A stretch of 64,000 nucleotides of DNA from the NCBI RefSeq assembly GCF_964275005.1, contig NC_092688.1:21209903-21273902 (forward strand), written 5' to 3'. The stretch comes from Diadema setosum. Taxonomy: Eukaryota > Echinodermata > Echinoidea > Diadematoida > Diadematidae. Shown here one piece after another: positions 590 to 60,657 of the stretch. Under the pieces are notes generated by a model that searched no databases, was not told the origin of the DNA, and saw only the letters and a program-made list of their open reading frames with translations. The position numbers and the translations under genes were made by a program. Within the stretch, counting starts at the first letter, position 1. Every line of letters starts with the position of its first letter.

Positions 590-810
590 AATAAGCACTA
601 GGTCTGAACTGATCAGTGTTTTGCCAGCAGCCATAATAATATAAATCATGGGCATAATGTACTCAAGCAGGATTTGAACCAACGGCCTCCTGATCTTCTG
701 ACAGGCATCATCTCCACTAGACTACAGAGCTTACGCCAGACAGCAAGTGGTGGTCCTAATCCTTATAGCATGCAGCGGGTACTGCATAATTATTCAAATA
801 AAACATTTCG
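590..810 (-). repeat. tRNA-derived SINE, copy 2
   Basis: Second copy of the same family in the same orientation, with box A (AGTCTAGTGG near 713-723) and box B (GGTTCAAATCC near 669-680). The flank 'acagcaagtggtggt' and the following 'gcatgcagcgg.tactgc.aattattcaaat' are shared with copy 1. The pair may therefore have arisen by local tandem duplication and not by two separate insertions. Confidence 0.7.
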
Positions 811-1540: not shown

Positions 1541-2861
1541 CTGTTTGTGAGAAAAATAAATGTAAATTCCAATGTAATACACCTCCACATACTTGTCATG
1601 ACCATAAAATTCAAATTTAAAGAAGGATTGTAGGTATTATTGGTACGGGCCTATGATGAAATACCTAACTAAATTATTACTCACCGAGTGGCTAACGGGA
1701 CTTGGAGCTGAAGGCACCACCAGCAGGAATGGTAGGCGACCGTATCAGTAGAGGAATGCACTAGGGCACCAGAAAAGGTGTAAAGTGTCCTTGTAGGTTG
1801 TATTGCACTTCCCGAAATAATATGGACTAACTCCGAATGCACTAAGGGTGTCCGAAGACGACAGTGTCCCACAGAAGTATGTACAAAATATCCAGCAGCA
1901 GCGTGGAGTATCCTCCGAGTGCCGCGGCTAGCACAAGCGAGGGTAGAGTCGATCCACAGCTGGAGCGCTGGATAGAAGAACTGCACGGTCCCTAGCTGGT
2001 TGTGGTTGAATCTGCACACCACAGACCACGCGCTAGCAGGACAGAAGCAGCTAGCGATGTGATGGGACGCAGATCGCGTTGAATGCAACGATGTAACGAG
2101 GCGCCGATCGCGTTCAGATCGCGTTGAATGCAGCGATGTAACGAGGCGCCGGTCGCGTTGAATGTAGCGATGTTAAGATCCCCAGGTTGGAGTGTAGCCT
2201 GAAGAAAGGGCGAGTCGCGACGAAAAGTAGCGAATGCCGCGAAGTACGAAATCCGGGAAAGTGTAATAATCCGTATTGTATAATCCGTATGAAGTGCCAG
2301 TCCACGGCGCGAGGTATCGTCAGCGCGAGAAGACGTGTGAAGTATACGGACGTAGTATGCGGACGTGAGTGACTCCAACGATTAGGACGTGCTCTCGGAA
2401 TGAAAGCTAATCGTGAAGTGAGGAAGCGTGGAAAATGAAACAGCGTGGTCGGAGAAAACATGTCACGGACAGGAGCTTTGAGAGTGGTAATTGGCTGATG
2501 AGAATGCACAGCTCGCCACTAATTGGTAGCTTGTTTCCGTGACAGCAAAACAAGGGGTGTGTTTATGAAAATCCGACTACTGTTGGAATGTGAAATACGC
2601 GTACCTCGGCACGATGACAAAAGCGAAGAATGTAGTGCGCACCTGTCGTGTGCCGGCGCACAAAGAAAGCTCGCGTGGATGTTGACAGAATGCTGGGTTG
2701 TCAGACAGCATAATTGACAGCAGGCAGACAGTAAAAATACCGAGATATTGGAAACCGCTACATTTAGCCCCCTTCCAGATCGCTAGTGGAGAAGTCAATG
2801 GAATGAAGACTAAAAACAAGCGATCGATACGAAAAGGTAAACCAAGTAGAGGCTGAAAATA

Positions 2862-3908: not shown

Positions 3909-4106
3909 TGTAAGTATTATTGGTACGGGCCTATGATGAAATACCTAACTAAATTATTACTCACCGAGTGGCTAACGGGACTTGGAGCTGAAGGCACCAC
4001 CAGCAGGAATGGTAGGCGACCGTATCAGTAGAGGAATGCACTAGGGCACCAGAAAAGGTGTAAAGTGTACGTGCTTGGCCCTATACGATCACGTCGGGGT
4101 CACCAA
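3909..4106 (-). repeat. duplicated LTR-start and primer-site fragment
   Basis: Bases 3909-4068 repeat the first 160 bases of the LTR (compare 4107 onward). Bases 4069-4106 repeat the primer-site region seen at 3872-3908. The result is a short tandem duplication at the boundary between the internal region and the right-hand LTR, probably from recombination or template switching during reverse transcription. Confidence 0.75.
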
Positions 4107-4773
4107 TGTAGGTATTATTGGTACGGGCCTATGATGAAATACCTAACTAAATTATTACTCACCGAGTGGCTAACGGGACTTGGAGCTGAAGGCACCACCA
4201 GCAGGAATGGTAGGCGACCGTATCAGTAGAGGAATGCACTAGGGCACCAGAAAAGGTGTAAAGTGTCCTTGTAGGTTGTATTGCACTTCCCGAAATAATA
4301 TGGACTAACTCCGAATGCACTAAGGGTGTCCGAAGACGACAGTGTCCCACAGAAGTATGTACAAAATATCCAGCAGCAGCGTGGAGTATCCTCCGAGTGC
4401 CGCGGCTAGCACAAGCGAGGGTAGAGTCGATCCACAGCTGGAGCGCTGGATAGAAGAACTGCACGGTCCCTAGCTGGTTGTGGTTGAATCTGCACACCAC
4501 AGACCACGCGCTAGCAGGACAGAAGCAGCTAGCGATGTGATGGGACGCAGATCGCGTTGAATGCAACGATGTAACGAGGCGCCGATCGCGTTCAGATCGC
4601 GTTGAATGCAGCGATGTAACGAGGCGCCGGTCGCGTTGAATGTAGCGATGTTAAGATCCCCAGGTTGGAGTGTAGCCTGAAGAAAGGGCGAGTCGCGACG
4701 AAAAGTAGCGAATGCCGCGAAGTACGAAATCCGGGAAAGTGTAATAATCCGTATTGTATACCCTTGTAAAAAA

Positions 4774-5970
4774 ATACCATGGTTTGACTATGAGGCATAA
4801 CCATGGTTTTACATTGGATCCATCCATGGTTTAACCATAGTGCAATATGGTTTGATTATGGTCAAACCATGGTGCACTAATGTTTAACCATAGTTTAACA
4901 ATAGTTAAACAATAGTGCACTATGGTTAAACCATGGTATCTACGGTTAAACCATAGGTTTAGCATGGGTTAACCATGGTAACCATGGTTTAAAGGTGGTA
5001 AATTGGAACGCACTTACCATGACATTACTGTGGTATTACCATGGTCACTACTGTGGTTCTACAGTACCAAAACCATGGTTAAGAAAAAGTAAAACCATGG
5101 TTACGGAAGTGTGAAACCATGGTTAGGAAATGGTGAAACTATGGTTAGGAAAAGATGAAACCATGGCAAACTTATGGTTTAACCATAGTGCAATATGGTT
5201 TAATTATGGTCAAACCATGGTGCACTAGTGTTTAACCATAGTTTAACCATAGTTAAACAATGGTACACTATGGTTAAACCATGGTAGCCATGGTTAAACC
5301 ATAGGTTTAGCATAAGTTAACCATGGTAACCATGGTTTAAAGGTGGTAAATTGGAACGCACTTACCATGACATTACTGTGGTATTACCATGGTCACTACT
5401 GTGTTTCTACCAAGCCAAAACCATGGTTGAGAAAAAGTGAAACCATGGTAAAGGAAGTGTAAAACCATGGTTAGGAAATGGTGAAACCACAGTTAGGAAA
5501 TGGTGAAACTACGGTTAGGAAAAGATGAAACCATGATAAACTCATGGTTTAACCATAGGGCAATATGGTTTAATTATGGTCAAACCATGGTGCACTAGTG
5601 TTTAACCATAGTTTAACCATAGTTAAACAATGGTGCACTATGGTTAAACCATGGTAGCCATGGTTAAACCATAGGTTTAGCACAAGTTAACCATGGTAAC
5701 CATGGTTTAAAGGTGGTAAATTGGAACGCACTTACCATGACATTACTGTGGTTTTACCATGGTCACTAACTTGTGTTTCTACCGTGCCCAAACCATGGTT
5801 ACGAAGAAGTGAAACCATGGTTAAGGAAGTGTAAAACCATGGTTAGGTAAAGGTGAAAGTTTGGTTAGGAAAAGATGAAAACATGGTTTTACAGCTGCCA
5901 AACCACAGAATTACAACCCAAATAACGATACAACCATGATCCATTGTACAAAGTAAACCCACTATTTAAC
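4774..5970. repeat. left subterminal CCATGG repeat array
   Basis: The array is dense in AACCATGGTT and one-base variants. It is organised as about three longer units, with the landmark 'gtcaaaccatggtgcact' at 4861, 5209 and 5579, giving a period of about 350-370 bp. The units are not copies of the right-hand array units but use the same core palindrome, as expected for transposase-binding or structural subterminal repeats. Confidence 0.85.
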
Positions 5971-6661
5971 CACAGTGCAATATCGTAGAAAAATGTATTT
6001 TTAACTACAGTTGTATTTCACAAGTACTTTGAGAAACCATGGGGAAATTTGGTTGGAGAAATATATTTTTCCACAATTGCTTTGCTATTTGATGAATAAT
6101 GATCAATAAATAGCACAGTAGAGTCTTCACATAAAGTGATGAAATAAAAATATTTTCAGTAAATTACCTGGAGCAGAATAATAATTCTTACAATTCCTAT
6201 ACATATGTATTGTGATACAGTACATTTGTAAACATGTATATGAACCTGGACTCTGAAACAGGAGAAAACCAATTCTCTATTACATGTATTTTCCTTCTAG
6301 CTATAGTCTAAAAAATATGTACAGCTGTATTTAAAAACTGACTTCCATGTGTGTGTTGGTGGATGGGTGCAGATTTTAAGTGTTAATTGATTCACTGTTT
6401 AATAAAAGAAGCTATATGTAGCAACGAGTACATGTAGGTCGATGCTCTTACCAGCATTGACTTTCACACAGCCAAAGCTCTCCCCAAAACATACATGTAT
6501 ATCGAATACACTATGGCCAAATTGAGGAAACCAATAAGTCCCAATTTTTATGGCCTAGTCATGTGTATTCCTCTGAACATGCAGAAGTCAAACATTGCCC
6601 AATTTGATGTGCTTTTTCAGTCAAAAATGACTGACTGGAGTTGACTGTACTGTCATTAGCA
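5971..6661. other. unassigned interior of the giant element
   Basis: AT-rich with short ORFs only. A segment near 6240-6265 ('ggactctgaaacag') has a look-alike near 33892, hinting at an older dispersed repeat. No gene is supported. Confidence 0.35.
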
Positions 6662-7117
6662 TTTAAAGGCACATAGACCCGGTGGTTTGCTTGCGTACAC
6701 GGCGCATGGCACAAGCTTCCTTGAGAGACCTATGCTATCGACTCCTCTTTATCGTTAGCGTACACGGCGCACGGCACAAGCTTCCTTGAGAGACCTATGC
6801 TATCGACTCCTCTTTATCGTTAGCGCTTACGCTTTGACCCATTTCCATGAGTCCGAAGAAGTCCAATCCACTGCTGATGATGACAGCTTTAATATTTTTT
6901 TCTCTGAAGTCAAACAAAGAAGCATGCACCCTGGCATTCAAATTCTACGGACTGTCTGACACGCAGAGAAGACAATGAAGGCAACATTACCTAGCAACAC
7001 CTACGCGCTTTACCGTTGAAGACAGCTCAATTTCGGCAGTCTTTGTATCAATGCTAATGGTGATCGGCACTCTCATCCAAAAGCGCTGCAGTAACTACCG
7101 GGTCTAGGCACCTTTAG
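6662..7117. mobile_element. small TIR element inside the giant element
   Basis: The left end TTTAAAGGCACATAGACCCG and the right end (CGGGTCTAGGCACCTTTAGA) are imperfect inverted repeats, about 456 bp apart. Inside, a 65-bp unit is tandemly duplicated (6693-6757 and 6758-6822, 'gcgtacacggcgca..'). No coding capacity is seen, so it is MITE-like. Confidence 0.55.
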
Positions 7118-7705
7118 AATAAGAAAGTACACAAGGGTAGAAACAGTCAATTATGATTATACATTCAAAAGTTATTTTTCAGCAGCTGGGTGTGAGAAGT
7201 CAAAGTATCATACAAATATCACATTATTTCCAGTTGCAAAACTGTAGGTTTATGTAAACAAATCAATGAAGAAAATGTACTCTTACTGAACCTCAGACAA
7301 CAAATAAGACATAAGAATGCACATTTGCTCACTTTGCTGTTACGATTGAAAAGTAGCTTTTTATTGCTTCATGAGCAGCATCTTGACTGTACGTGGGTAT
7401 GGCTTATTGCCAGTCACATGATTTAAAACTATAAGAATATCACCTGCAAAGAATTAGTTGGATAATTAAATACAGTGTACATATATTAGTGCATGTTTGA
7501 TGTACATGATCATTAGTAGCTTTGAATTGTATAGATAATGCAAATTTGGACTTAAGTGACACCAGGAGCACTGGACAACAGAACAAAACAGCATCAAAAA
7601 AAAAAAAAAAAAAAAAATATCTAGCAACCAACAGTCCTGACATGAGAGCATACATGAACACTTCACATGCTTTGAAAACTGTCCTTGTACTTCTACTGTC
7701 CAAGA

Positions 7706-7863
7706 CTATCCAGCAGTAAGCTTTGGTGCAACTTCTGGATGAGGCTTCGCAGGAACTAGGTCTTGATATAGCTTGGTTAGTGTGCCCTTTGTCGTTGTGG
7801 AGCCTTGAGATGTCCTTCTTTTGCAACCGTGAGCCGTGAGAATTTTCTTGGGGAAGATCACTC
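7706..7863 (-). CDS. possible last exon carried by the giant element
   Basis: On the minus strand an acceptor ending ttcgttgcag at 7864-7865 precedes 158 nt that read open in phase 1 to a TAG (7708-7706). The product is about 51 residues, begins VIFPKKILTAHGCKRRTS and ends PEVAPKLTAG. The composition (Lys/Thr-rich, then Pro) is protein-like and the overlapping frame is less so. I do not recognise a domain. It could be the 3' exon of a transposase-related or captured gene whose other exons are the duplicated pieces at 8390-9201. Confidence 0.35.
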
Positions 7864-8389
7864 CTGCAACGAACTGAGAATTTATTCATTACGCTATTAT
7901 TTTTTTAAAATAATAATAACGTGTAGTACGTGTTAAACTCTACTTCAAATACTCAACACACAAAATTCTTGCACAGAATAGTTACCTTGCAAAAAAAACA
8001 TAAGAATGGGATTAGATTGATGTGGTACACCTAGCCATCATTTCATCACTCTAATGTGCTGGAGAGATACTGTTTAAAATACAGTGTACTTTTACAATCA
8101 TTTTAACCCCTAAGTGCCACATACAGGTGAAGCCATTACGTTCCACATTCCATATCATGTATTGTGCACAAATTGCCTAGAGTAATTTCATGTTTTTCAA
8201 AAATTGATCACATTCTATTTTAAGCAGGTTGCCAATATTTTAGGATGCTGCATAGCATGCTGCTGGTATTTGAGGATGTTGCACAAGAATTTGGGTATGC
8301 TGCAGTGTAATGCTCAAATTCCTCATGAACTACACTAATAATGGGTTGAAAAAAAGAAACAAAGAAAGAAAGAAAGAGGAGTATCTTAC

Positions 8390-8613
8390 CCTTGATGACA
8401 TGGAAAAGCGGGAGAAAGTATGACATCAGTAGATGGACTTCTCTGCACCAGAATTCAGCCAGGAGGATGCCATACACGTATCAGCACTGCATATACTTGT
8501 ACCCATGAAAGGAGCTAGCTAGGGGACAGCCTGATCGATGGTCATGGGTGGACTTCAAGTCTTCTATGGAGAAACCTTCTCGTGTCAGCCACTGGCACAA
8601 TCAATCATTGATT
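8390..8613 (-). pseudogene. degenerate exon, copy 1 of a tandem pair
   Basis: On the minus strand a strong acceptor (ttttttttcctcatcag) and donor (CAAGG|gtaaga) bound 224 nt. The same block recurs at 8934-9201. Frames are broken here: the start matches N-Q-x-L-I-V-P-V-A-D-T-R-R of copy 2 with an early stop, and the end reads GILLAEFWCREVHLLMSYF in another frame. It looks like a decaying duplicated exon inside the giant element. No domain is recognised. Confidence 0.35.
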
Positions 8614-8933
8614 CTGATGAGGAAAAAAAAAGATAACACAACATAACGATAATAGTGATGATTGAGAGAAGTGAAATAACGTTAGGCAGAAAAATCACAC
8701 AGGAAAATGATGTAACATACAAAATACAGCATTGGATGATTTAAAGTTTGGTGCTTGTGCTAGCTCCCAAATGACTGCTGGAATAAAAGACTCCCAAATA
8801 TTCTACAATGTCGCATAGCATGCTGCTGGTTTTTGAGGATGTTGCACAAGAATTTGGGTATGTTACAGCGATATGCTCAAATTCCTAATGAACCATACTG
8901 GGTTGAAATAAAGAAACAAAGAAAAAGGAATAC

Positions 8934-9201
8934 CTTCTCCTTGATGACATGGTCAAACGGGAAAAAACATGACATCAGATGATCCACTTCTTTGCACCAG
9001 AATTCAGCCAGGAGGATGCCATGTACACATATTGATGTAAATCAGCGCTGCATGTGTATCATGTACTTGTACCCATGAAAGGAGCAAGCTAGTGGACAGC
9101 ACGATCAATGGTCATGGATGGACCTCAAGTCTTCTATGGACTGCAAGTCTTCTATGGAAACACCTTCTCACATCAGCCACTTGCACAGTCAATCTTTGAT
9201 T
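8934..9201 (-). pseudogene. degenerate exon, copy 2 of a tandem pair
   Basis: Same block as 8390-8613 with the same cctcatcag acceptor. It starts NQRLTVQVADVRRCFHRRLA, contains a short internal duplication ('agtcttctatgga' twice) and then meets a stop. The 3' part encodes HGILLAEFWCKEVDHLM in another frame. The donor is weaker (GAGAAG|gtattc). The duplicated unit extends into flanking intron-like sequence (8820-8900 matches 8250-8330), so the duplication copied exon and intron together. Confidence 0.35.
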
Positions 9202-10855
9202 CTGATGAGGAAAAAAAAAAACACACGACATAACAATAATACACCTATTAATGATTGAGAGAAGAAAAATAAGGTTTGCCAGAAAAATCACACAACAATC
9301 CGTTAGGTGAATGATATACTGGTATAACATACAAATTACAAAATACAGCATCCTTTGCCATTGGGGGATTTCAAGATCAGTGCTAGTGCTAGCTCCCAAA
9401 TGACTGACTTAAATTGAGCTCCAACACCGACGGTCGGATTAACTAAGCGATACTTATCAAAGTTATTGATCCCCAGCAATAGGTGTTGGAATCGCAGCAT
9501 CGCAAGGTCCGTGAGAATCGCACGACGAAAAGTGATGGCGCATGATTACACTCGAATATTAAAAGATGCAGGACTGCTTAGTTTTTAGACACAAAGTGAG
9601 GAAGACAGACTAAAATGCCTCAAATTTCAACCATTCTTCAAAACACAACTTAATATTTAATTTTATGCTTCCAGGCTCAGATTTATGAAGCCACATGCTC
9701 CTGTAGGGCCTACGTTTCGTGGCGTGGGTGACCATTGCATTAGCATAAAATGTACATGCTACAGGCCTAACTCTTACACTACAAAATGGCGGAGCTAGGT
9801 TCAGCAGACGACATTCTTTGATTTCAACACCAAGCCCAGCACTTGACCGAAAGATTGGTCTGTATCTCGTCGACGGGGATATGTTCCACAGAGCAGAGAC
9901 TGCATCTGGCTTTACGGATCCCCTCCTATAGACATAGTCCGGAGGTAGAGAGCCATAAGTAACGTCAAAAAAAAAAAAAAAATAAAAGACTCCTCCTTCG
10001 GACAGACGAATCTTTCACAAGTTTGCCCAGCACTAGCAACCAGAAATTTATGACATATTTTTGAGGTCATCCTACCAGCACCTACGGACTTCAAGTTCAC
10101 TTCAGTTTTATCGCCAGTGCCAGTGGCTGCCAGTGCTTAAGTTAGTGCTGAGACACAATCAAAGAGTATAGAAGCTAAGAGGGCGTACTCTCGCGACTTG
10201 GCACGCAAACGGGTGTAGTGCGGCATGGAGCGGGAGCCCAACATGGAGCCCAATGGCAGCCAATTTAGTAATAATACCGCAAGCTTCTTAAACACGTGAG
10301 CCTATGGAGCAAACCCTACCTTCCTTTCATTTTCTTCATTTTAAAAGGAAGCACACAGCGGTAGAATTGCATTTCAGACCTCAAAATATCACAAAAAGTA
10401 TATTTTCTGTCGATATGTAAAAAAAAAAAAATTGAAGTAATGTAATTACTTTTTTATCAGTAGTCCCTCAGCAAGTTTGTATTTGAACTGACAAACGCCA
10501 CCTATCTCATTTCTCTCTCCCTCCCGAAACATAGTTTGGTCTACCTACTTCAGCTCAAACTTTGTGGGCCTGCAGATTGCGATTGGAAAGTAAATGACAT
10601 TTTTTTCAAATACATTTCACGGTTAGACAGGAATGATATTTCTTTACGACAAAACAAGATTCTAAGTACATACATCGGTACATATCTTCCCCTGTTAAGT
10701 ATGCCCCCTAAAAAGGGGAAAAATGAAAGGGAGACAGAAATACAAGGACCCAGTGATACGGCACTGATATCATGATCGCGTAATATACAGTACGCCCTCT
10801 AATCAATCTATCGGTCTGTTGCTTTCAATGGCGGAATGGAGTCAGTATTTCGCCC
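9202..10855. other. unassigned interior of the giant element
   Basis: Mostly short ORFs. A minus-strand stretch at about 9985-10130 reads TEVNLKSVGAGRMTSKICHK and then FLVASAGQTCERFVCPKEES before a poly-T-derived run. It could be another exon, but no good splice pair bounds it. Nothing further is supported. Confidence 0.3.
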
Positions 10856-11020
10856 ATGAGCGTACTAGTTCGCAGGAGTAAGCCCTTGTGTCTTAGCGTA
10901 GCTTCTACTGATTATCTTGATTCACTGGAGCAGTTACCACTAGAAGTCCTAACAGAGTTAGCAGAAAATAGTGTTGTTGATGTAGCTTGCACCGAACCTG
11001 ATATCACCACCCAATATGAG
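10856..11020 (+). CDS. possible 5' exon inside the giant element
   Basis: A plus-strand ORF starts at ATG 10856 and runs into a donor-like GAG|gtaggc at 11020/11021 in phase 0. The product includes STDYLDSLEQLPLEVLTELA and ends PDITTQYE, which is acidic and protein-like. The LPLEVL segment recalls the start of an F-box, but it is too short to call. An alternative ATG at 10828 (MAEWSQYF) lies in another frame. It is on the opposite strand to the exon pieces at 7706-9201. Confidence 0.3.
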
Positions 11021-12277
11021 GTAGGCCTATGCCTACTAACATTGTTAGGGATTACGCCTAACTGTTAGAACTACCGACTACCGTCTTGTTAGCCCGACCA
11101 GACGCTGTTAGAGTACGCTGTGCGAATAAATTATAGCCTGTCGCTACTAGTAGGGTTGGGGGTACCATGTATCGTCACCCTAAAGATCTGTAGCTTGTTT
11201 ATTCTAAAAATATAACACAAATCCGCCTAATTCTTACCTCAAATATGCCATAAATACTGCAGTTTTGAATGTCGTGACCGTCTCGTTGATTATGAATCTC
11301 CGTTTTAAAATAGCGCAATTTTAGCGCGTGCGTTTCGTTTTCTTCGCGCAGCTAAAAAGGGAACCTTGCGATCGGCACCCCCTAACCTCCATAGGTATAC
11401 ACGTGAATTTCACAGCATAGGTAATACACGTGAATTTCACAGGCCATAGGTAACACGTTAATACACGTGAATTTCACAGCCATGCGTCGTTACTGAGCGG
11501 ATGTGTAATTTTTAGCTTGGTTTGTTTGAGTTTGATTTTCGTTTCTTCGTTTTTATTGTTTTTATAGCTCATGACACTCAATCCCGTGCGTACCTTTTCG
11601 TTCTATACGCAAACAGCCATGATACGCAGGGTGCCGATGGGAAGGTGCCCTGCCGATAGGTGGTGCCCCAACCATACTAGATCTACACTGTCTACAGCGA
11701 CTGGGTTGTGTATAGAATCTAGTTACCGTAGATAACTTGTAGAATTTACGTGACACAGTAACACTAACAGTTCAGTACATATACAGTAGCTGAGTTAGAA
11801 CAACTCATTCCAAATTCTTGAGCTCTCATGTCATACTCTCACACTCACTGACTCAGTCACACTTTCAGATACAGAACAGTCTACTGGACTGGTTATCCCC
11901 ACTTGATACGATCATGCGAAATTTGCACAGCAGGGGCAGGGCCGCTGCCGGCCCCGGGTCGGTCGGGACAATTCAATGCAAATCTCGCTGGTATCAGTGG
12001 TAATTATTTTAGCTAAGATTAGGTCTACTAATAATGTATTAAAAGTTACGTTGACCAACCTTCCTCGAAGAATCCCAAAGGAGCAGTTCCTCTTTTTCTT
12101 AGGGGCCGTTTGCTAGCCATTTCTGAAAATATCATATTCGTACGTCGAGATGTTTGACTCCGGTCAGAGATCATCACGAAAGAGCGTTTGAAATGATGAA
12201 CAGCAAATCATCGTAGCCGTGTGTGTGGTTTTTGAGCGCGGTCGCGGACTAACGGTTCAGCAGTACATACACGTAAG
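11021..12277. repeat. unassigned DNA with a short tandem repeat
   Basis: At 11388-11482 the unit 'catagg.aatacacgtgaatttcacag' occurs about three times. The rest holds no gene I can support. It ends at the 3' tail of the I-type LINE. Confidence 0.45.
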
Positions 12278-12887
12278 GTTGTTTGTTGTTGTTGTTGGTG
12301 CTTAAAGGCGCGTCATTCAATATTGAATATTTACGCCTTTTATCTCATATATAAAAGGAATCACACTCATTTTTCGACAACGGAAAGAATAATAATTCCA
12401 TTGTAATATAAATAAAATAATAATCATTATTATAATTAAGCGCGGGGAGCAATCTGTACGCATAAAGGTTGAGATAGAGAAAAACACCTCGTAAAAGGCT
12501 CGCAAAATCTGGTCAGCCCGGCTCGGTAATGTTGAGCAGGCTTCTCGGCCGATCGCGCATGACCTAGACCACTCATTTGCAACGAGGGCGCTCCACCCAA
12601 CACATTATTTTGCAATACAGTTTCCCGATTTGTATACACCATGCTAAACAAAACATATTACCTAGCTATATAATTCTAACCACAAAATACAAACAGACAA
12701 GCCCAATAGCGGGTAAGTGCAGTGCTGTGCTGTGCATCAATGATGTTACGTTATATACTATTCCTCCTGATTATCTTCTCATTAGGTAGAAATAAGAAAA
12801 TAAGAGAAAAGAACACAGAGGAGATGAAATGAGACTTGACACATCAGTCCCCGATAAATATGTTTCTTGAAAGAAAGAAAAAAAAAA

Positions 12888-15800
12888 TCATATTCTGGCA
12901 TATATGCCCGTGGATTTCAAAAAGAATAAAACACATTCTTGGCGGAGTTCGTCATTTTGGAGCAAATGTTGTAATGTGAGAGCATCAGATGATATCTTTA
13001 GACGTTTGCATAAAAACTTTCGTTCTCTGGAGTATTCTTTACAATACATCAGAACATGAGAGATAGTCTCTTGTTCTTTACAAGTATCACATTGTCCATT
13101 ATCATGTTTTCCTATTTTACACAAATAATAATTAAGCCTACATTTTCCAAGTCTTAGTCGATGTAATACACATTCATCTTTTCTATTTTTACAGAATGAT
13201 TTAAATTTCGCATATGGTGTAGGCTGAATGGTATAAAGATGCCTTCCATGTTGTGAATTTTCCCATCTCGTACACCAGATCCCGGTGTAAAAATTCAACA
13301 TATAACCACGTAATTCTGTCACCGTATAAGAGACTTGCAAATCAACTTCTTGGTGTGCGAGTCCTGATTTGGCAAGAGTATCAGCTCTCTCATTACCTGA
13401 TATTCCACAATGAGAGGGGACCCACTCAAAAAACAAATTTGTGCCTTTTCTATATAAATGTGTAATTTTGCACAGAATTTCAAAAACAACAGAAGAAGAA
13501 TCTCGATGTTCTATTGCCTGTAATGCAGATAAAGAATCAGTTAAGATCAACACAGGTGTTTGGATTATATGGTTCACTTCTAACCATTCCAGGGCCATTA
13601 GGATGGCTATGAGTTCCGATCTGTATACTGAAACGGGAGGGATCCGGAACGCTTTACCATATTTATATTGTGGTACATAAAAAGCAGAAGAAGATACTTT
13701 ATTCTCTTGTTTGGAAGAACCATCTGTATAAATCGTTAAAAAATTTTTCCTTTCATTATTAATATACTCTAACATCATCTCTCGCAAATCATACTCATTA
13801 ACATCTTTCTTATTGGCTATTCTTTTCTTAATATAATAAGAAATATGTGGTGCAACCAAGTGCCAAAAAGGAATACCTCTAATACAACTGTTAAAATGTT
13901 CGATGCTTTCATCTAAAGTAGTGAATCTCATTGCAACTGGTTCTCTGCCAGCTTTCCAGTGACATGTTTCGTATTGCCAGCAAGGTAACAGGAGTGATTT
14001 TAAAGGATGATTTGCATTTTGCGCTTGAATGTGGAATTTAAATAAATCAGTAAAATATTGCCTTCGTAAATCCAGGGGCATCTCCCCACACTCTATTTGG
14101 AGTGCATCAGTTGAGGTAGTTACAACGGCTCCTGTGATAATCTTCAAACATTGATATTGAATTGATTGTAATCTATCCTTTTGATATTTAGGGGCTGAGT
14201 CATATACAATACACCCATAATCCAAAATAGATCGAATAAGTGCTCTGTAAACTACAAGTAGAGTTGCTGTATCAGCTCCCCAGTCAGTGCCAGCTAAACT
14301 CCTCAGCAAATTCATTCTTTTCTTACATCTTATTATAATTGATTCTATATTACTCTTCCAAGTTAACTTATAATCAAACCACACACCGAGATATCTAAAC
14401 TCCTTTTTAACTTCCATGGGCTCAGCACCTAATCTAATACATGCCTTTGGTATTCTTCTGTTGCTAAATACAACAGCGCATGACTTCTTCGTTGATAATA
14501 TCATGCCCCAATTATGGCACCATTCAGATATAAAATCAAGAGCTGTTTGAACTTTCTTCACACAAAAATCAAAATTTTTATTTACACACCATATCGCTAC
14601 ATCATCAGCGTACAAGGAGGCATTAACCTTGTTTAGTCCATCATTCAAATCACTCAGCATTATGTTGAATAATGTCGGGCTGATAACACTGCCTTGAGGT
14701 AAACCATAGTCAGACACAAATGTATCGGACAAAACATTGTTAAGCTTAACTTGAATTGTTCTGTTATTCAAAAAACTATGTATCCATGTAATAATTCTTC
14801 CACGGAAACCCATCTTGTGCATCTTATAAATAATTACTTCTCTGTACAACACATCATAAGCTTTTTCAAAATCCAAAAAACAAGATATAACATATTCCTT
14901 ATTTACCAAACCTTTATGTACATCATTTTCTAAACTAACGATCGCGTCCATTGTGCTTCTATGACTTCTAAAACCAAACTGATTAGGGGATAATAACTGA
15001 TATTTCTCTATTATCCACAACAATCTGTTATTAATCATACGTTCCATCAACTTACACATCACCGAAGTCAGAGATATTGGTCTGTATGACGAGGGTTTTG
15101 ATGGGTCTGAGTCTTGTTTCAGAATCGGGTTGATGATTGAATGGGTCCATCCTTGTGGCAGCACGGATGTTTTCCAAATAAGATTGAAAATTCGTAACAA
15201 ATTATATAAGGCACACTCAGGAAGGTGTGTAATCAAAGGTTGGCAGATATAATCATGCCCTGGCGCAGTATTTTTAGTGGCCTTAATCGCCGTAAACAAT
15301 TCAGAAATAGTAAAATCTTCATTTACAATTTCATATTTATCGTATTCATTAAAGTCAATATAAGACTCCAACGTATCTATTTGCTTTTGCAAATTTTGAG
15401 CATTTGGCGGATGGAATGATGTGTACATCCTTGCTAACTCCTCTGCCTTTTCCTTATCATCAGCAACAACTCGGTCTTCAAAAATAAAAGCAGGGGTCCT
15501 TTTATTTACCCCGGAGATATTACCGTTCATTGACTTTATTTTATTCCATACTTTCCCAATCGGGGTGAAACGGTTTAGTGTTTCACAAAAACTTCTCCAA
15601 TGGGAATGTTTTGCTTGTCTTATTATTCGTTGTGCTATTGCCTTTTTGCGAAGGTATATTTGCAAATCCGAATGAAGTAATGTTTTCTCAAATCTATTTT
15701 TGGCTTTATTTCGTGTTTTCACAGCTCTCTTACACTCGTTATTCCACCATGGTGTCGGCCTTCTTTTTACTGTTTTCATATCGTGTAACTTAAACATATC

Positions 15801-16679
15801 ATTTGCAGTACAAAAAACCTTCTCGATAAACGAATCATACTGCTCTTGAACAGTACTTTCACGAGACATAGGATTGTTCTCAGCACAGAATACAGTACAG
15901 ATTTTCTCAGAGTACAAATTCCAGTTAGCATTCAGGAATGACCAAATATGTCTTCCATTATTTCCAGATTCATTGACTTCGGGGGAAGTACCTGACATCT
16001 TGATGGTGGTACGGATAACATAATGATCACTTCCGTGATTCTGTGTTGTAGCAAACCAATTACAACGTGCGCCGAGGTCCTTTGACACTAAGGTCAGATC
16101 AAGGCTAGAAAAGTTTCCACTGCGGGGATCTAACCGCGTGGGGGCGCCGTCATTCAGTAGCACTAAATCATTTTTCGCTATGAAATTCTCAACTACATCT
16201 CCGTTTTTATCAGTGTGATCACTGCCCCACAGAACATTATGGCTATTGAAATCTCCGCAAAGGAATAATCTTCTCCTGGATTTATCTATGAGGCTCTGTA
16301 ACTTGGTCTCTGTCAAAGTCGAACAAGGATTATAAAAATTTATTATCGAGAGTATGGATTTATCAATAAAAATATCTACTTGTTGACATTCTGCTTTCAC
16401 ATTACAGTCGATAACTTGGAAAGGGATTGACTCATGGATATAGATAGCGCAACCTCCCCGTGGGGTATCCCTGTTTCGGGGTATGCAGTGGTAGCGAGGA
16501 ATATGAACAATATTTAGATCATGGAACCAGGTTTCCTGTAAACATATAACATGTACCGGCGTACATTGGGAATTTGACTTTGTTAAATATTGAATAAATT
16601 CAAAACCGTGAGCGTTAAAACTCTGTGAGTTCCACTGTAATAATATTATGGCGATTATGGGAAGTAGTCGGGCCGTCAT
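12888..16679 (-). CDS. LINE ORF2: endonuclease, reverse transcriptase, RNase H
   Basis: This 1263-residue ORF is uninterrupted. An APE-type endonuclease occupies roughly residues 1-235 (LQWNSQSF, CLQETWF, LCGDFNSHN, SLDLTLVS, GSDHYVI). The reverse transcriptase covers about 470-760, with FLDFEKAYD, GLPQGSVISPTLFN and the catalytic ASLYADDVAIW. A C-terminal RNase H near 980-1110 has its acidic residues in LTIYTDGSS, YRSELIAIL and LILTDSLSAL, plus VPSHCGISGNERAD. A Cys/His cluster (CDTCKEQETISHVLMYC) follows, as in I-clade elements. It would nick target DNA and reverse-transcribe the element RNA from the nick. All visible catalytic motifs are present, so it may be active. Confidence 0.9.
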   Translation of the reverse strand: MTARLLPIIAIILLQWNSQSFNAHGFEFIQYLTKSNSQCTPVHVICLQETWFHDLNIVHIPRYHCIPRNRDTPRGGCAIYIHESIPFQVIDCNVKAECQQVDIFIDKSILSIINFYNPCSTLTETKLQSLIDKSRRRLFLCGDFNSHNVLWGSDHTDKNGDVVENFIAKNDLVLLNDGAPTRLDPRSGNFSSLDLTLVSKDLGARCNWFATTQNHGSDHYVIRTTIKMSGTSPEVNESGNNGRHIWSFLNANWNLYSEKICTVFCAENNPMSRESTVQEQYDSFIEKVFCTANDMFKLHDMKTVKRRPTPWWNNECKRAVKTRNKAKNRFEKTLLHSDLQIYLRKKAIAQRIIRQAKHSHWRSFCETLNRFTPIGKVWNKIKSMNGNISGVNKRTPAFIFEDRVVADDKEKAEELARMYTSFHPPNAQNLQKQIDTLESYIDFNEYDKYEIVNEDFTISELFTAIKATKNTAPGHDYICQPLITHLPECALYNLLRIFNLIWKTSVLPQGWTHSIINPILKQDSDPSKPSSYRPISLTSVMCKLMERMINNRLLWIIEKYQLLSPNQFGFRSHRSTMDAIVSLENDVHKGLVNKEYVISCFLDFEKAYDVLYREVIIYKMHKMGFRGRIITWIHSFLNNRTIQVKLNNVLSDTFVSDYGLPQGSVISPTLFNIMLSDLNDGLNKVNASLYADDVAIWCVNKNFDFCVKKVQTALDFISEWCHNWGMILSTKKSCAVVFSNRRIPKACIRLGAEPMEVKKEFRYLGVWFDYKLTWKSNIESIIIRCKKRMNLLRSLAGTDWGADTATLLVVYRALIRSILDYGCIVYDSAPKYQKDRLQSIQYQCLKIITGAVVTTSTDALQIECGEMPLDLRRQYFTDLFKFHIQAQNANHPLKSLLLPCWQYETCHWKAGREPVAMRFTTLDESIEHFNSCIRGIPFWHLVAPHISYYIKKRIANKKDVNEYDLREMMLEYINNERKNFLTIYTDGSSKQENKVSSSAFYVPQYKYGKAFRIPPVSVYRSELIAILMALEWLEVNHIIQTPVLILTDSLSALQAIEHRDSSSVVFEILCKITHLYRKGTNLFFEWVPSHCGISGNERADTLAKSGLAHQEVDLQVSYTVTELRGYMLNFYTGIWCTRWENSQHGRHLYTIQPTPYAKFKSFCKNRKDECVLHRLRLGKCRLNYYLCKIGKHDNGQCDTCKEQETISHVLMYCKEYSRERKFLCKRLKISSDALTLQHLLQNDELRQECVLFFLKSTGIYARI

Positions 16680-16682
16680 CGT

Positions 16683-18191
16683 TTATACTTTCAGGTCTGA
16701 CAGTAATAGATGGATATCCTCTGGTTTGACAGAATCTATATCCAGGAACGCAATCGCTGCATCAACCACAAGTTTGATTCTGTTTGAATGTGATTTGTGT
16801 GAATCTAAATTGTTGATGATAAAGACAAAAAACGACAGAAATTTAGTGAAGTCAACATGGACGATAAAGTTGTTGTTCGGCTTTGTATTTCCCACCTTCT
16901 CTGTTCTCACTGATGTATGGTTTTCATTTGCCTTTTCACAGAGAGAATCCACTGGGGTAGGTTCTTGGGTAGCGGGCATTGCCGTTTTGTTAAACTTCTC
17001 TCCATTGTTCCTATTTCGAGTATGGGGGTTTGGGTCAATGGTGTTCTGAACATTGGCAGTGTGGCTTTCAGCCTGTTTTACTACTTCCTCGGTAAGTGTA
17101 GTCTGCTTGGTGCGATTATATAGCTTCGCTGCGTCTGCGTAAGAGACGCGTTCTTGGTACCTAATGTTTTGTATTTCCCGCGCTTCTTTGTATTTTGGGC
17201 ACCCTTTGTACGCGGCTGAATGATCCTGACCACATCGTACACATTTTGGGTTTTCTTTTGATTTACATTCATCGAAGGAATGAGGGCCGCCACAGCGGAC
17301 ACAAACTTGCGTTTTTGAATTACAAGAGTCTTGGGTGTGGTTCAATCGTTGACATTTAAAACATCTAATTGGTGGTGGGGTGTATGAAGAGACCTTGTGG
17401 TGTTCGTAACCAAGTTGAATGGATTCTGGAAGTTCTTTGCTACTGAATGATAACAGAACCGACCCGGTGGCTTGCAAAGCCCCGTTTCTTTTCTTCATGA
17501 AGCGTTTCACTCTTTCTACCTTTTGTGTCTTTAGGTTGTCTAGGATTTCTTCGTCTGTTAGTTCCGTATCTACCTGATGTATAACACCACGTGAAATGTT
17601 TTCGAAAGGCTCGTAGACTTTTACACAAACCGACATTCCCCCGAACTCCGTCAGCTCGAGAAATTTAGATACCTGTTGTGTGGTTTTACACTTGATGAGT
17701 AGTGTGCGATTTTTGCATCTTTTCATAGACTGCACATCCCCAACATATGAGTGTATTTCCCGTGCAATTTTGAGGGAATTCAGGGAGCAAATGTTTTTGT
17801 TTTCCAGGGCAGAAATTACTACCGATTGGTTGTGAGTTTGAGTAGACCTTTGCGGATGTTTTTGGTTGTTAGTGTGGGTTTCATTTTCTGCAGTATTTGA
17901 TCTTGTCGTGGAGACAGACGACGAACGTCTTGGTCTTTTTTTCCTGGTATTATGGGAGTCATCTGACCCACCAGTATTTTGTCTTTCTTTCTTTTTTCTA
18001 CCAACAGTCTTCCACACGCCTTCTTCATAATGGTCAACATCTTCGTCCTGGTTACTATCACTAGATCTATCTTTACGTCTATGGATCATGGAGAGGGAGG
18101 GCCGTAGATTTTCTACAGGAGTATCAGGATTGGGGGAGGCCATAAAAGAAGCATATTCTTCGTAGGCCTCCTCTCCGGAGGAGTCCGACAT
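16683..18191 (-). CDS. LINE ORF1: RNA-binding protein with three zinc knuckles
   Basis: This 502-residue protein has an acidic/basic, Ser-rich N-terminus (MSDSSGEEAYEEYASF). A middle domain of RRM-like or gag-like character follows (about 130-270, with SLKIAREIHSYVG and VCVKVYEPFENISRGVIHQ). Three CCHC knuckles lie near residues 278-345: C-x2-C-x4-H-x4-C, C-x2-C-x3-H-x4-C and C-x2-C-x3-H-x6-C. The C-terminus is polar. ORF1 proteins of I-type LINEs coat the element RNA and act as chaperones. The ORF is intact and directly precedes ORF2, so re-initiation is the likely way ORF2 is translated. Confidence 0.85.
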   Translation of the reverse strand: MSDSSGEEAYEEYASFMASPNPDTPVENLRPSLSMIHRRKDRSSDSNQDEDVDHYEEGVWKTVGRKKKERQNTGGSDDSHNTRKKRPRRSSSVSTTRSNTAENETHTNNQKHPQRSTQTHNQSVVISALENKNICSLNSLKIAREIHSYVGDVQSMKRCKNRTLLIKCKTTQQVSKFLELTEFGGMSVCVKVYEPFENISRGVIHQVDTELTDEEILDNLKTQKVERVKRFMKKRNGALQATGSVLLSFSSKELPESIQLGYEHHKVSSYTPPPIRCFKCQRLNHTQDSCNSKTQVCVRCGGPHSFDECKSKENPKCVRCGQDHSAAYKGCPKYKEAREIQNIRYQERVSYADAAKLYNRTKQTTLTEEVVKQAESHTANVQNTIDPNPHTRNRNNGEKFNKTAMPATQEPTPVDSLCEKANENHTSVRTEKVGNTKPNNNFIVHVDFTKFLSFFVFIINNLDSHKSHSNRIKLVVDAAIAFLDIDSVKPEDIHLLLSDLKV

Positions 18192-18300
18192 TGTTCCTTT
18201 TTCAAGTTTCAGAGATGGGGGTTACATGCCTTAAATAGGCGTTTTCCAGGCCTGTTGGTCCACTTTCAAAGGAAGAAAAACAAATATCAATACTGTCCAA

Positions 18301-19289
18301 AGAAGAGAGAAGAGAGACAATTGAGTGTTCGTAATCGTATGTGCTCGGGGTGCTGTTAGGGTGCTGCCCTAGTGCTTCTAAGAGGAAACCCGCTATATCT
18401 ACGTGGGCTTACCTGTCTGTTTTCGGTTTTGTGAACTTTCAGTCCGGTTGGTGGAAAATCAGAGCAGAAACATATAGAGCAGAGCAGAGCAGAGCAGAGC
18501 AGAGCAAAGCAGAGCAGAGCAGAGCAGAACAGAACAGAGCAGAGCAGAACAGAGCAGAGAGCAGAGCAGAGAGCAGAGAGCACCCCTCGCACGTCCTCCC
18601 TCTCCGACAAGCAGCGTGAGTACAAAAACAATTCAATCAGCGACAGTTCAATCAGCGACAACAACAACACGCACATGACCTCTTACGTTACATTATTATC
18701 AAGAAAACTTGTAATCATTAATTTTTTGGTTTTGAATTAAAAAATATATGTTTAAAACTTTTTCTTATTGCGAATTAAAATTTTTTTTAATGTGTCAATA
18801 TTTTTTATGCTCCATATATTTTGAAATATATTTTTGTTGTGATCTTTGGTACGAACGAGCCTCATATCAACAACCCGGATCTCCCATTCATCGTACACAA
18901 TTACTACACGCCGATTGCATTCATATAGTTTTCTATTGTTGTGTGTACATGTCAAAGCTAGGGATCGAACGGGCGGCAATGGGTTACTACCTTTTTTTAT
19001 TTTTTCACGAGTATGTAATCTCATTTAAGGTTTTTTATGTGCTTTATTCCGTAGTGAATAGATGTTGCATTTTAGGAATGCTGTAAATCAAGCAAGTGAA
19101 GCAGCTTTTTGTTTGCAATGGTAAGACTACTGTTTGTTTACATAATCCTGTTGAAGCCAAACGGGTGCTGGTGGTTGCGTTAGATGAATGTCCGTCATGA
19201 CTTGCATTGGCATTGCGGCCATCAAATTATGAGTTTTCATATTGATTTTTGTGATCGACATCATTCAATAATCATGGCTAGTGCACGTG
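18301..19289. repeat. AGAGC pentamer microsatellite and unassigned DNA
   Basis: Bases 18474-18586 are an (AGAGC)n run with few interruptions. Long ORFs across it (Leu/Ser/Cys on minus, Arg/Ala/Glu on plus) are products of the repeat, not genes. 18590-19289 is AT-rich with no supported feature and leads into the right-hand CCATGG array. Confidence 0.7.
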
Positions 19290-21277
19290 GTTTAAACTTT
19301 GGTAAAACAAAAAGTTAACCATGGTTTAATAACCACTGTTCTTATGCTATCATACAAGGTTCCATGGTTAGAAATTCTAGAATATGGTTTTTCCGCACTC
19401 TATATCTGATCAGCATGAAACCACGGTTGAAACCATTGATTGTTAAAAAATAACCACTTTTTCAACCGTGGGTAAACAGAAGTTAAACCACGGTTTTATA
19501 ACCACTGTTCCTATGAGCTATCATACAACCATGGTGAAAATCATATGGCTTTTTAACCGCCTCTTCACTATCATGAAACCACGGTTCGTAGAACCAATCA
19601 TTGTTTCATAACCATCCTTTGCACATCACACTATGATAAAACCATGGTTCAAATCCTGGTGTAGCTATGACCATCGTTTTCCTTGCTAAAATGGAATTTG
19701 AACGATTGTTTAAAACGTTGTTTTCACACTTTTGTTAAACCACTGTTAAAGTCATGGTTATATAGCCTAACCATCATTTTTTAACTATGATAAAACCATG
19801 GTTAATATAATCATGGTTAATAGCCATCGTTTTCAACCTTTGTAAAACGAAGTTTAACCATGGTATTATAACTAGTGTTTTTGTGCTATCATAAAACCAC
19901 GGTTAAAATCATGGTTTTATAACTATTGTTTTTACACTATCATAAAACCATAATGAAATCATGGTTTTATAACGATGGTTTTCAACCTTAGTAGAACGAG
20001 AGTTACACCATGGTTTCCTAACCATTGTTTTTATACTATTGTGAAACCATGGTTACAACCATTGTTATATTATTATGTTATTTTTACCAAAGTAGAACGA
20101 TAGTCTTGTTGTGGTTTTCTCACCATTTTTTTTTTATTTCTTAAAACTGTGGTATAACGATAATTTTTTAACCATGGTTTTAAAACACTTTCATTAAACC
20201 ACTGTTAGAGCCATGGTTATATAACCATCATTTTTAACTATGATAAAACCATGGTTAATATCATGGTTATAATACCCATCATTTTTAACCTTTGTAAAAC
20301 GAAAGTTTAACCATGGTATTATAACTAGTGTTTTTGTGCTATCATTATACCATGGTTGAAATCATGGTTTTATTACTATCTTTTTTACACTATCATAAAA
20401 CCATGATGAAATCATGGTTTAATAACGATGGTTTTCAACCTTAGTAGAATGAGAGTTACACCATGGTTTCCTAACCATTGTTTTTATACTATTGTGAAAC
20501 CATGGTTACAACCATTGTTATATTATTATGTTATTTTGACCAAAGTAGAACGATAGTCTTGTTGTGGTTTTATCGCCATTGTTTTTTTAATTTCTTAAAA
20601 CTGTGGTATAACGATAATTTTTTAACCATGGTTTTAAAACACTTTCATTAAACCACTGTTAGAGCCATGGTTATATAACCATCATTTTTTAACTATGATA
20701 AAACCATGGTTAATATCATGGTTAATACCCATCATTTTTAACCTTTGTAAAACGAAAGTTTAACCATGGTATTATAACTAGTGTTTTTGTGCTACCATAA
20801 TACCATGGTTACAATCATGGTTTTATTACTATCTTTTTTACACTATCATAAAACCATGATGAAATCATGGTTTAATAACGATGGTTTTCAACCTTGGTAG
20901 AACGAGAGTTACACCATGGTTTCCTAACCATTGTTTTTATACTATTGTGAAACCATGGTTACAACCATTGTTATATTATTATGTTATTTTTACCAAAGTA
21001 GAACGATGGTTTTGTCGTGGTTTTCTCACCATTGTTTTATTAATTTCTTAAAACTGTGGTATAACAATGATTTTTTCACCATGGTTTTAAAACCGTCGTA
21101 AAATGAAAGTTTTATCATGTTATCATAACTATGGTATTTTAACAATGGTATTACCACACTTTCGCCACACATTTACCATGGATATGAATTAAAAATCATG
21201 GACTACCATCGATCCATTGTAAAACCGTCCATAACCATGGTTATACCATAGTTACCGTTGTAAAACCATGGTTTTTT
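19290..21277. repeat. right subterminal CCATGG repeat array
   Basis: About 2 kb dense in AACCATGGTT-like palindromes. The inner part (19290-19700) is diverged. The outer part is built of about 452-bp tandem units: 'tttaaccatggtattataac' starts at 19853, 20306 and 20758. These units differ from the left-array units apart from the palindromic core. Confidence 0.85.
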
Positions 21278-22022
21278 TTTATAAGGGTAATCCGTATGAA
21301 GTGCCAGTCCACGGCGCGAGGTATCGTCAGCGCGAGAAGACGTGTGAAGTATACGGACGTAGTATGCGGACGTGAGTGACTCCAACGATTAGGACGTGCT
21401 CTCGGAATGAAAGCTAATCGTGAAGTGAGGAAGCGTGGAAAATGAAACAGCGTGGTCGGAGAAAACATGTCACGGACAGGAGCTTTGAGAGTGGTAATTG
21501 GCTGATGAGAATGCACAGCTCGCCACTAATTGGTAGCTTGTTTCCGTGACAGCAAAACAAGGGGTGTGTTTATGAAAATCCGACTACTGTTGGAATGTGA
21601 AATACGCGTACCTCGGCACGATGACAAAAGCGAAGAATGTAGTGCGCACCTGTCGTGTGCCGGCGCACAAAGAAAGCTCGCGTGGATGTTGACAGAATGC
21701 TGGGTTGTCAGACAGCATAATTGACAGCAGGCAGACAGTAAAAATACCGAGATATTGGAAACCGCTACAGGATAATAACAAACTGCTGTAACCATTAGAC
21801 CTAGATAACTGGAAAGAAGAAGAAAAAAATCTTTCAAATGGGTAAAATATTTTTGATAGCTATGTGCTGATTTAATGTAATCAGACGGTTCATTCTTTGT
21901 CGCAAATTACAAGGACTTCTTGATATCTATTCAACAGGAAAAGAGCTCCAATTGAATCCATGGGACAAACCTGAACACTGTAGCACACAATTCACTTCCC
22001 CAAACAAACAAACAACAACAAC

Positions 22023-35526: not shown

Positions 35527-35645
35527 GTCAGAAGTTAGAGCTGACATTTTTCTGGGATGGATCTGATGGTGCTTCATTGTTCAATTCTGGTACAAAGTGT
35601 TTATTGGTATCTCTTGAATGCAGTCCATGTCCTTGGTGATGCCAA
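35527..35645 (-). pseudogene. tandem exon array, copy A1 (degenerate)
   Basis: The acceptor ctggaaatgaag side is kept (tttccag|TTGGCATCACC). The coding start matches GITKDMDCIQEIP, but an 11-base insertion shifts the frame and the GTGAGT donor is lost. It is about 625 bp from copy B1. It belongs to the minus-strand candidate gene. Confidence 0.5.
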
Positions 35646-36159: not shown

Positions 36160-36272
36160 CAGTGAGAAGTTGGTCAGAGCTGACATTCTGTGGGATGGAT
36201 CTGACAGTGCTTCATTGTTCAATACTAGCATTGGTATCTCTTGAATGCAGTCCATGTCCTTGGTGATGCCAA
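36160..36272 (-). pseudogene. tandem exon array, copy B1 (one-base deletion)
   Basis: Acceptor tttccag|TTGGC and donor CTG|gtgagt are both intact. The frame reads GITKDMDCIQEIPMLVLNNE. The exon is 113 nt because one base is missing in the PSQQ region, which shifts the last residues. The sequence is a mosaic: A-type start, B-type middle. Unequal exchange or gene conversion in the array would explain that. Confidence 0.5.
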
Positions 36273-37128: not shown

Positions 37129-37130
37129 AT

Positions 37131-58874: not shown

Positions 58875-58879
58875 TTAAA

Positions 58880-60655: not shown

Positions 60656-60657
60656 AA

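What the first reader, a model, noticed from the sequence alone, without database searches (positions are those of the whole stretch)
4761..21287. A 16.5-kb DNA transposon defined by CCATGG-palindrome arrays
Seen: exact TA duplication, CCCTT inverted ends and restoration of a 1134-bp LTR when the insertion is removed. Each end is followed by 1.2-2.0 kb packed with AACCATGGTT palindromes in long tandem units (about 350-370 bp left, 452 bp right). The two arrays share only the core palindrome. Established: some DNA transposons carry subterminal repeats bound by transposase. Inference: this is a very large non-autonomous, or unusually coded, element of an unassigned superfamily, with the palindrome as its recognition site.
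Basis: partly seen in the sequence, partly recalled or inferred. Interest (0 to 1): 0.85.

Follow-up and report, generated by a model that had tools for sequence, protein, structure and literature searches.

The report
Giant palindrome-flanked non-coding DNA transposon
A 16.5-kb piece of mobile DNA jumped recently into this unidentified genome; it carries no recognisable jumping enzyme of its own, but both its ends are packed with dozens of copies of one short palindrome that is probably the docking site for the enzyme that moves it.

Summary
The element is 4761..21287 (16,527 bp). It splits one LTR of a retrotransposon whose two LTRs are otherwise 100% identical over 1134 bp. It is flanked by an exact TA duplication, with 28-bp imperfect inverted ends (CCCTT..., 25 of 28). 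At each end lies an array, 1.1 kb left and 2.0 kb right, with 33 and 45 AACCATGGTT sites (at most 1 mismatch; shuffles about 0.3). The 13.35-kb body has none. The arrays share almost only the palindrome (21 of 22 shared 12-mers contain CCATG or CATGG), and their site spacings differ (10.9 against 12.6 bp).

In six frames of the whole element only a nested LINE (endonuclease, RT, RNase H) reaches a Pfam cut-off; no transposase does.

Best reading: a young, non-autonomous cut-and-paste transposon, moved in trans, with the palindromes as multivalent docking sites, as in Galileo and CACTA ends. Docking is inferred; motif and spacer diverge about equally between unit copies, so selection on the motif is not shown. 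Superfamily unassigned: TA fits Tc1/mariner, CCCTT looks like piggyBac but TTAA is absent. No host genome was held, so other copies could not be sought.

The parts
4759..4760 (.). TA target-site duplication, left copy
   Evidence: LTR comparison
21288..21289 (.). TA target-site duplication, right copy
   Evidence: LTR comparison
4761..4788 (+). left terminal inverted repeat, CCCTTGTAAAAAAATACCATGGTTTGAC
   Evidence: 25 of 28 identical to the right one
21260..21287 (-). right terminal inverted repeat, CCCTTATAAAAAAAAACCATGGTTTTAC on the minus strand
4761..5900 (.). left palindrome array: 33 AACCATGGTT sites (at most 1 mismatch), about 3 units of 348-370 bp, site period about 10.9 bp
19251..21287 (.). 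right palindrome array: 45 AACCATGGTT sites (at most 1 mismatch), about 3 units of 453 bp plus an inner part outside them, site period about 12.6 bp
5901..12280 (.). non-coding body: no Pfam match in six frames; contains a 65-bp tandem pair (6693-6825) and a 78%-identical direct duplication (8234-8701 / 8797-9294)
12280..18670 (-). nested non-LTR retrotransposon (LINE), limits tentative (no target-site duplication established)
12888..16682 (-). LINE ORF2 (1264 codons open, stop to stop): AP endonuclease, reverse transcriptase, RNase H
   Evidence: Pfam PF14529/PF03372, PF00078, PF00075
16683..18221 (-). LINE ORF1 (512 codons open, stop to stop); zinc-knuckle-like CCHC motifs by eye, no Pfam match
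4107..4760 (-). interrupted LTR, first part (minus orientation judged by eye from a primer-binding-site-like stretch)
   Evidence: 654 of 654 identical to 1629-2282
21288..21769 (-). interrupted LTR, second part
   Evidence: 482 of 482 identical to 2281-2762
1629..2762 (-). uninterrupted partner LTR (1134 bp, TG...CA) that shows the empty site

Best explanation
A young, non-autonomous cut-and-paste (class II, DDE/D-type) DNA transposon of 16.5 kb, or about 10 kb without the nested LINE, that duplicates TA. It is moved in trans by a transposase encoded elsewhere. The two-fold symmetric AACCATGGTT sites, about 33 on the left and 45 on the right, are most likely bound by dimers of the transposase or of an accessory DNA-binding protein. 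Many weak, short sites per end would give the specificity and the stable end pairing that a 10-bp motif and a 28-bp imperfect TIR cannot, and may offset the cost of pairing ends 16 kb apart. Shown: the insertion, the TSD, the TIRs, the arrays, and the absence of a Pfam-detectable transposase. Inferred: mobilisation in trans, the DDE/D chemistry, binding to the palindrome, dimers, and the role of multivalency.
For: Exact empty site in an otherwise 100%-identical LTR pair, with TA duplication and 25-of-28 TIRs. Arrays start at the TIR on both sides, and the TIR itself contains CCATGG. 33 + 45 sites against about 0.3 each in shuffles, 0 in the body. Two arrays with different units and spacing periods, 10.9 and 12.6 bp, share essentially only the palindrome, as expected if the palindrome is the functional part. 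No transposase domain in six frames of the whole element at E up to 5: no match at all in 5900-12882, only the LINE domains above cut-off in 12880-18233, and only sub-cut-off, non-transposase matches elsewhere; a read-through control recovers the LINE domains. Precedents: Galileo, where THAP-domain binding sites recur in tandem repeats of the ends and are proposed to give binding specificity (PMC3688188, abstract); CACTA/En-Spm, where TNPA recognises subterminal repeats that are cis-determinants of transposition (PMC2613891, passages).
Against: Only one copy could be examined. Motif columns are not clearly more conserved than spacer columns across unit copies (mismatches left 33/520 against 48/510, right 30/629 against 32/709). 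Left period is near one helical turn, right is not, so a simple same-face binding model does not fit both ends. Pfam may miss a divergent or multi-exon transposase. The longest open frame in 5901-12420 is 154 codons, reached by 4.5% of 200 shuffles.
Confidence: 0.68

Rival explanations
1. Real transposon, but the arrays are satellite-like by-products: short palindrome-bearing units near the ends expanded by slippage and unequal exchange, and have no role in transposition beyond the outermost site or two in the TIR.
For: Hierarchical tandem structure (11/22-bp within 348-370-bp units; about 50-bp within 453-bp units). Motif and spacer diverge about equally between unit copies. Weak left-right similarity above the motif-preserving null. 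Precedent: Tetris terminal tandem repeats seeded satellite DNA (PMC4079207, abstract and passages).
Against: Two different unit families amplified around the same 10-bp palindrome at both ends, with no site at up to 1 mismatch in the 13.35-kb body.
Confidence: 0.22
2. On family (overlaps with the best explanation): a member of the Tc1/mariner/pogo superfamily, enlarged by captured and nested sequence; the palindromes are a peculiar form of the internal binding sites that some of these elements have.
For: TA duplication is the hallmark of this superfamily (recall; Passer of the pogo group: TA TSD, most TIRs under 30 bp; PMC9976928, passages).
Against: The Passer elements described are 1.6-4.0 kb; the CCCTT start is not one I recall for the superfamily (recall, not a test); no DDE domain is present to classify. 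TA duplications also occur in PHISTA and ESTA lineages (PMC12730594, sections 14 and 16).
Confidence: 0.35
3. On family (overlaps with the best explanation): a CACTA/CMC-like element: large size, short TIR and long asymmetric subterminal motif arrays bound by a TnpA-like protein, with a 2-bp TA duplication as in ESTA.
For: Architecture closely parallels the 20.5-kb soybean CACTA element with asymmetric subterminal repeats. The CMCT lineages make 2-5 bp TSDs, and ESTA makes TA.
Against: Ends are CCCTT, whereas CMCT lineages share 5'-CA..TG-3' termini 'in most cases'; no CACTA transposase domain found.
Confidence: 0.15
4. Palindromes bind a host factor, for example a transcription factor, chromatin or silencing protein; the arrays drive transcription or hide the element rather than serve transposition.
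For: A 10-bp symmetric site is a typical dimer target (general knowledge); no transposase is at hand to test.
Against: Arrays sit exactly at both transposon ends and include the TIR, where recombinase binding is expected.
Confidence: 0.1
5. Assembly or recombination artefact rather than a transposition.
For: A single record with no read data.
Against: Exact TA duplication, matched TIRs at both junctions and a base-perfect empty site.
Confidence: 0.02

Closest known systems
Galileo (P-element superfamily, Foldback-like; Drosophila)
   Same: Tandem arrays at both ends holding many short transposase-binding sites; proposed higher-order synaptic complex and specificity through multiplicity (PMC3688188, abstract)
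   Different: Galileo has long terminal inverted repeats; here the arms share only 28 bp of TIR and the palindrome. Galileo's TSD is not TA (recall).
CACTA / En-Spm (CMC), e.g. the 20.5-kb soybean element
   Same: Large; short imperfect TIR; asymmetric subterminal motif repeats; non-autonomous forms moved in trans (PMC2613891, passages)
   Different: CACTA ends and a 3-bp TSD there; here CCCTT and TA; here the motif is a perfect palindrome and no CACTA transposase domain is found
Tc1/mariner/pogo (e.g. Passer)
   Same: TA TSD, most TIRs under 30 bp (PMC9976928, passages)
   Different: 1.6-4.0 kb there; no long palindrome array described in the three passages seen
piggyBac
   Same: CC[C/T]T-type termini (PMC2872659, parts 1-2 of 4)
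   Different: TTAA duplication there; here TA only, in an empty site reading TTGTATAATCC
Foldback-like Tetris
   Same: Non-coding, terminal tandem repeats of about 220 bp, no known transposase (PMC4079207, abstract and passages)
   Different: 8-10 bp TSD; long terminal inverted repeats

Membership tests
DNA (class II) TIR transposon | short target-site duplication flanking the element, shown against an empty site | tested here: met
   TA; identical LTR partner gives the empty site
DNA (class II) TIR transposon | terminal inverted repeats | tested here: met
   25 of 28
DNA (class II) TIR transposon | multiple dispersed copies with the same ends | not testable with these tools
   no genome held; only one copy in the window (of 9 matches at up to 3 mismatches the two exact ones are this element's own ends)
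Tc1/mariner | TA target-site duplication | tested here: met
Tc1/mariner | DDE/D transposase of the superfamily in the element or its autonomous partner | tested here: inconclusive
   none in the element; partner not searchable
CACTA/CMC | CACTA-type or 5'-CA..TG-3' termini | tested here: not met
   ends are CCCTT...AAGGG; the cited rule holds 'in most cases'
CACTA/CMC | 3-bp TSD (2-5 bp across CMCT) | tested here: inconclusive
   TA, 2 bp: outside classic CACTA, inside CMCT
CACTA/CMC | subterminal motif repeats | tested here: met
piggyBac | TTAA target-site duplication | tested here: not met
piggyBac | CC[C/T]T termini | tested here: met
   rule from PMC2872659
ISL2EU (PHIS) | AT duplication in A|AT|T | tested here: not met
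   TA duplication; rule from PMC4482050 passages
Foldback / Galileo | long arms that are inverted copies of each other | tested here: not met
   no left-right match of 60 bp or more at E up to 1e-5; left against reverse right: 2 of 60 null shuffles reach the observed score

The most novel reading that the evidence does not exclude
The element represents an undescribed lineage or superfamily of TA-duplicating, CCCTT-ended transposons whose end recognition is by kilobase-scale arrays of a perfect 10-bp palindrome read by a dimeric DNA-binding domain. The left and right arrays would have evolved independently around the same site, allowing cargo of more than 16 kb.
Probability: 0.2. Interest if true: 0.75.

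Novelty: new variant of a known kind. Interest (0 to 1): 0.5.

Why it matters
If the palindrome is the transposase site, this is a natural extreme of multivalent end recognition: some 80 short symmetric sites in place of one long specific end. It would give a clean test of how short binding sites achieve specificity and how very large elements pair their ends. The insertion is young (0 differences over 1134 LTR bases), so an active transposase was probably present recently in this genome and could be found by its ends.

Tried and rejected
Pattern scans of viral contigs with the TIR, a left-array 41-mer and a triple palindrome gave 0, 0 and 1 locus; a triple-palindrome scan of genome contigs gave 30 stretches. 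All 31 loci were examined for site density. By collection, record title and regular short spacing they look like unrelated prokaryotic or phage tandem repeats. One of 31 (L003) also holds an 11-base piece of the TIR (tested on one strand only); it was not followed up. None was aligned to the window.

Other elements of the same kind in the window: of 9 matches to the 16-base end at up to 3 mismatches (3.27 expected), the two exact ones are this element's own ends. TACCCTT occurs 7 times, 7.0 expected. Shorter nested elements were therefore not supported.

Gene capture: an exon-like ATG...GAG|GTAGGC frame near 10,855-11,020 has no Pfam or PDB match. LINE target-site duplication: three 9-mer candidates, none convincing. 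Purifying selection on the motif: not shown. Sub-cut-off Pfam matches in the arrays and the right-hand stretch (best: Mvb12, E 0.00055, 20.8 bits against a cut-off of 25; PaaD zinc ribbon, E 0.003; ryanodine-receptor segment, E 0.019) were taken as noise from repetitive sequence. Literature: 10 searches used. Searches (CCATGG as one of three terms; CCCTT; the palindrome and two array words) used the element's own sequence; the listings (20 of 137, 4 of 4 and 20 of 42 papers) showed no description of it. The library is open-access only, so this does not show that it is unpublished.

Full report
What was claimed and what is there. Self-comparison of the window shows two LTRs: 1629-2762 is intact and its partner is split. 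1629-2282 equals 4107-4760 (654 of 654) and 2281-2762 equals 21288-21769 (482 of 482); the two-base overlap at 2281-2282 is the TA that is present once in the intact LTR and twice around the insert. The empty site reads GTATTGTATAATCCG, and the occupied one GTATTGTATA|CCCTTG...AAGGG|TAATCCG. The insert is therefore 4761-21287, 16,527 bp. The LTR element itself has TG...CA ends and a GGAT duplication; it is a separate, older insertion.

Ends. The first 28 bases of the left end and the reverse complement of the last 28 of the right end agree at 25 positions; 0 of 200,000 random pairs of window positions reach 24. Similarity stops after about 30 bases (26 of 30, then 29 of 40, 31 of 60). CCATGG lies inside this TIR, 16 bases from the tip on both sides.

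Arrays. Exact AACCATGGTT occurs 24 times in the 64-kb window, 12 in each array and nowhere else; 100 shuffles expect 0.16. With one mismatch allowed there are 33 sites in 4761-5900 and 45 in 19251-21287; 300 dinucleotide shuffles of each array give means of 0.27 and 0.31, maximum 2. The 13,350-bp body has 0 such sites, the 4,760 bp to the left 0 and the 42,713 bp to the right 1. Tandem Repeats Finder gives 348/370-bp units on the left and 453-bp units on the right, about three copies each, with shorter sub-periods. Sites recur at about 10.9 bp on the left and 12.6 bp on the right. The null there is random placement, which ignores tandem descent; single-unit analyses, with 10-17 sites each, give the same picture, except that the left unit at 1 mismatch gives 10.35 bp.

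What the arrays share. At word length 12 (strands merged), 22 words are common to both arrays (of 707 and 1377 distinct), and 21 of the 22 contain CCATG or CATGG. A local alignment in direct orientation scores 49 against a null (left-array spacers shuffled, motifs kept) of mean 34.8 and maximum 48 in 60 shuffles; in reverse orientation it scores 44, which 2 of 60 shuffles reach. So the palindrome is what the arrays share, with a faint hint of older common descent. Against a claim of selection: between aligned unit copies, motif columns differ at 33 of 520 and spacer columns at 48 of 510 on the left, and at 30 of 629 and 32 of 709 on the right. That is no clear protection of the motif at this short time scale. 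The motif columns were chosen by near-match, which if anything favours conservation. As single strands, one unit of each array folds far better than shuffles (z -9.0 and -5.9), as expected from dense palindromes.

Body. Six-frame translations with stops written X were scanned against Pfam at E up to 5. 5900-12882 gave no family in any frame. 12880-18233 gave the LINE's endonuclease, reverse transcriptase and RNase H in one frame, one sub-cut-off match in another and nothing in the other four. 18230-19302 and the two arrays gave only matches below Pfam's cut-offs, none of them to a transposase; the strongest was Mvb12 at E 0.00055, 20.8 bits against a cut-off of 25. As a control, the same kind of reading of 11000-16682 recovers the LINE's four Pfam families, and the neighbouring frame gives none. 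The longest open frame in 5901-12420 is 154 codons; 200 shuffles average 116, maximum 184, and 4.5% reach 154. The minus strand of about 12.3-18.7 kb is a non-LTR retrotransposon with an open 512-codon ORF1 and a 1264-codon ORF2 (stop to stop). Its exact limits were not established. Without it the element is about 10 kb.

Age. With 0 differences in 1134 LTR bases the LTR retrotransposon is young and the transposon insertion younger still, barring gene conversion (inference). The LINE's frames are open too. Whether the LINE came inside the transposon or landed later cannot be told from one copy.

How it most likely works. Shown: a precise insertion with a 2-bp duplication, TIRs and palindrome arrays at both ends; no recognisable transposase inside. 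Inferred: a DDE/D-type transposase made elsewhere cuts and pastes it at TA; the palindrome, two-fold symmetric, is bound by a dimer of that transposase or of a helper protein; multiplicity gives specificity and pairs the ends. [quoted passage not shown] In CACTA elements TNPA recognises subterminal repeats that are cis-determinants of transposition (PMC2613891, passages). The left period is close to one helical turn and the right is not, so I do not claim same-face binding at both ends.

Which family. TA fits Tc1/mariner/pogo, and is also reported for the fungal PHISTA and ESTA lineages (PMC12730594, sections 14 and 16 and passages). ISL2EU is AT (PMC4482050, passages). The CCCTT tip resembles piggyBac, whose hallmark is TTAA (PMC2872659, parts 1-2 of 4), which is not met here. 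CACTA architecture fits, CACTA termini do not. Foldback arms do not fit because the arms are not inverted copies. The element is therefore left unassigned, with Tc1/mariner the single most likely home.

Limits. No genome of the host is held; no eukaryote collection, Repbase or Dfam is available; the organism is unknown. The LINEs, LTR element and satellites point to a eukaryote; that it is a marine invertebrate is an impression from its repeats and not a test. Scans of prokaryote and viral collections gave nothing that looks related. Passages of PMC2871265 and PMC5718144 were also seen and gave nothing used here.

Noticed in passing
57549-62325: A second DNA transposon (4,777 bp) with TIR TGTGGAGCCGGGAAATG..., arms that are inverted tandem arrays of an 18-base unit GCCGGGAAATGTGCAAAC, and a 5-bp duplication GGGGA (the longest of several candidates). 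It interrupts ORF1 of another LINE; flanks joined with one GGGGA read through 251 codons. Foldback-like; no Pfam match at E up to 0.1 in the 5 of 6 frames of 57900-62052 scanned.
   Followed up: partly
1629-21769 (minus strand): The host LTR element: 1134-bp LTRs, 100% identical, GGAT duplication, about 1.3 kb internal with one 342-codon frame (only a sub-cut-off Pfam match). On the minus strand the bases next to the split LTR, TTGGTGACCCCGACG, look like a tRNA primer-binding site (by eye). Apparently non-autonomous. A 160-bp piece of the LTR start is repeated at 3909-4068.
   Followed up: partly
10855-11020: Exon-like frame: ATG start and a GAG|GTAGGC donor-like end inside the transposon body; possibly a captured first exon. 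No Pfam or PDB match.
   Followed up: partly
45270-47088: Satellite-like tandem array of about 169-bp units.
   Followed up: no
37169-40510 (minus strand): 1113-codon open LINE frame with endonuclease and reverse transcriptase, C-terminal zinc-finger-like CPTC...H motif by eye.
   Followed up: partly
659-731 (minus strand): Weak tRNA match in Rfam just above the gathering score (29.9 against 29), possibly a tRNA-derived repeat.
   Followed up: no
35534-44102: Cluster of direct repeats, 77-88% identical and about 0.1-1.3 kb long, with one inverted 156-bp pair at 94% (36797-36947 / 41330-41482).
   Followed up: no
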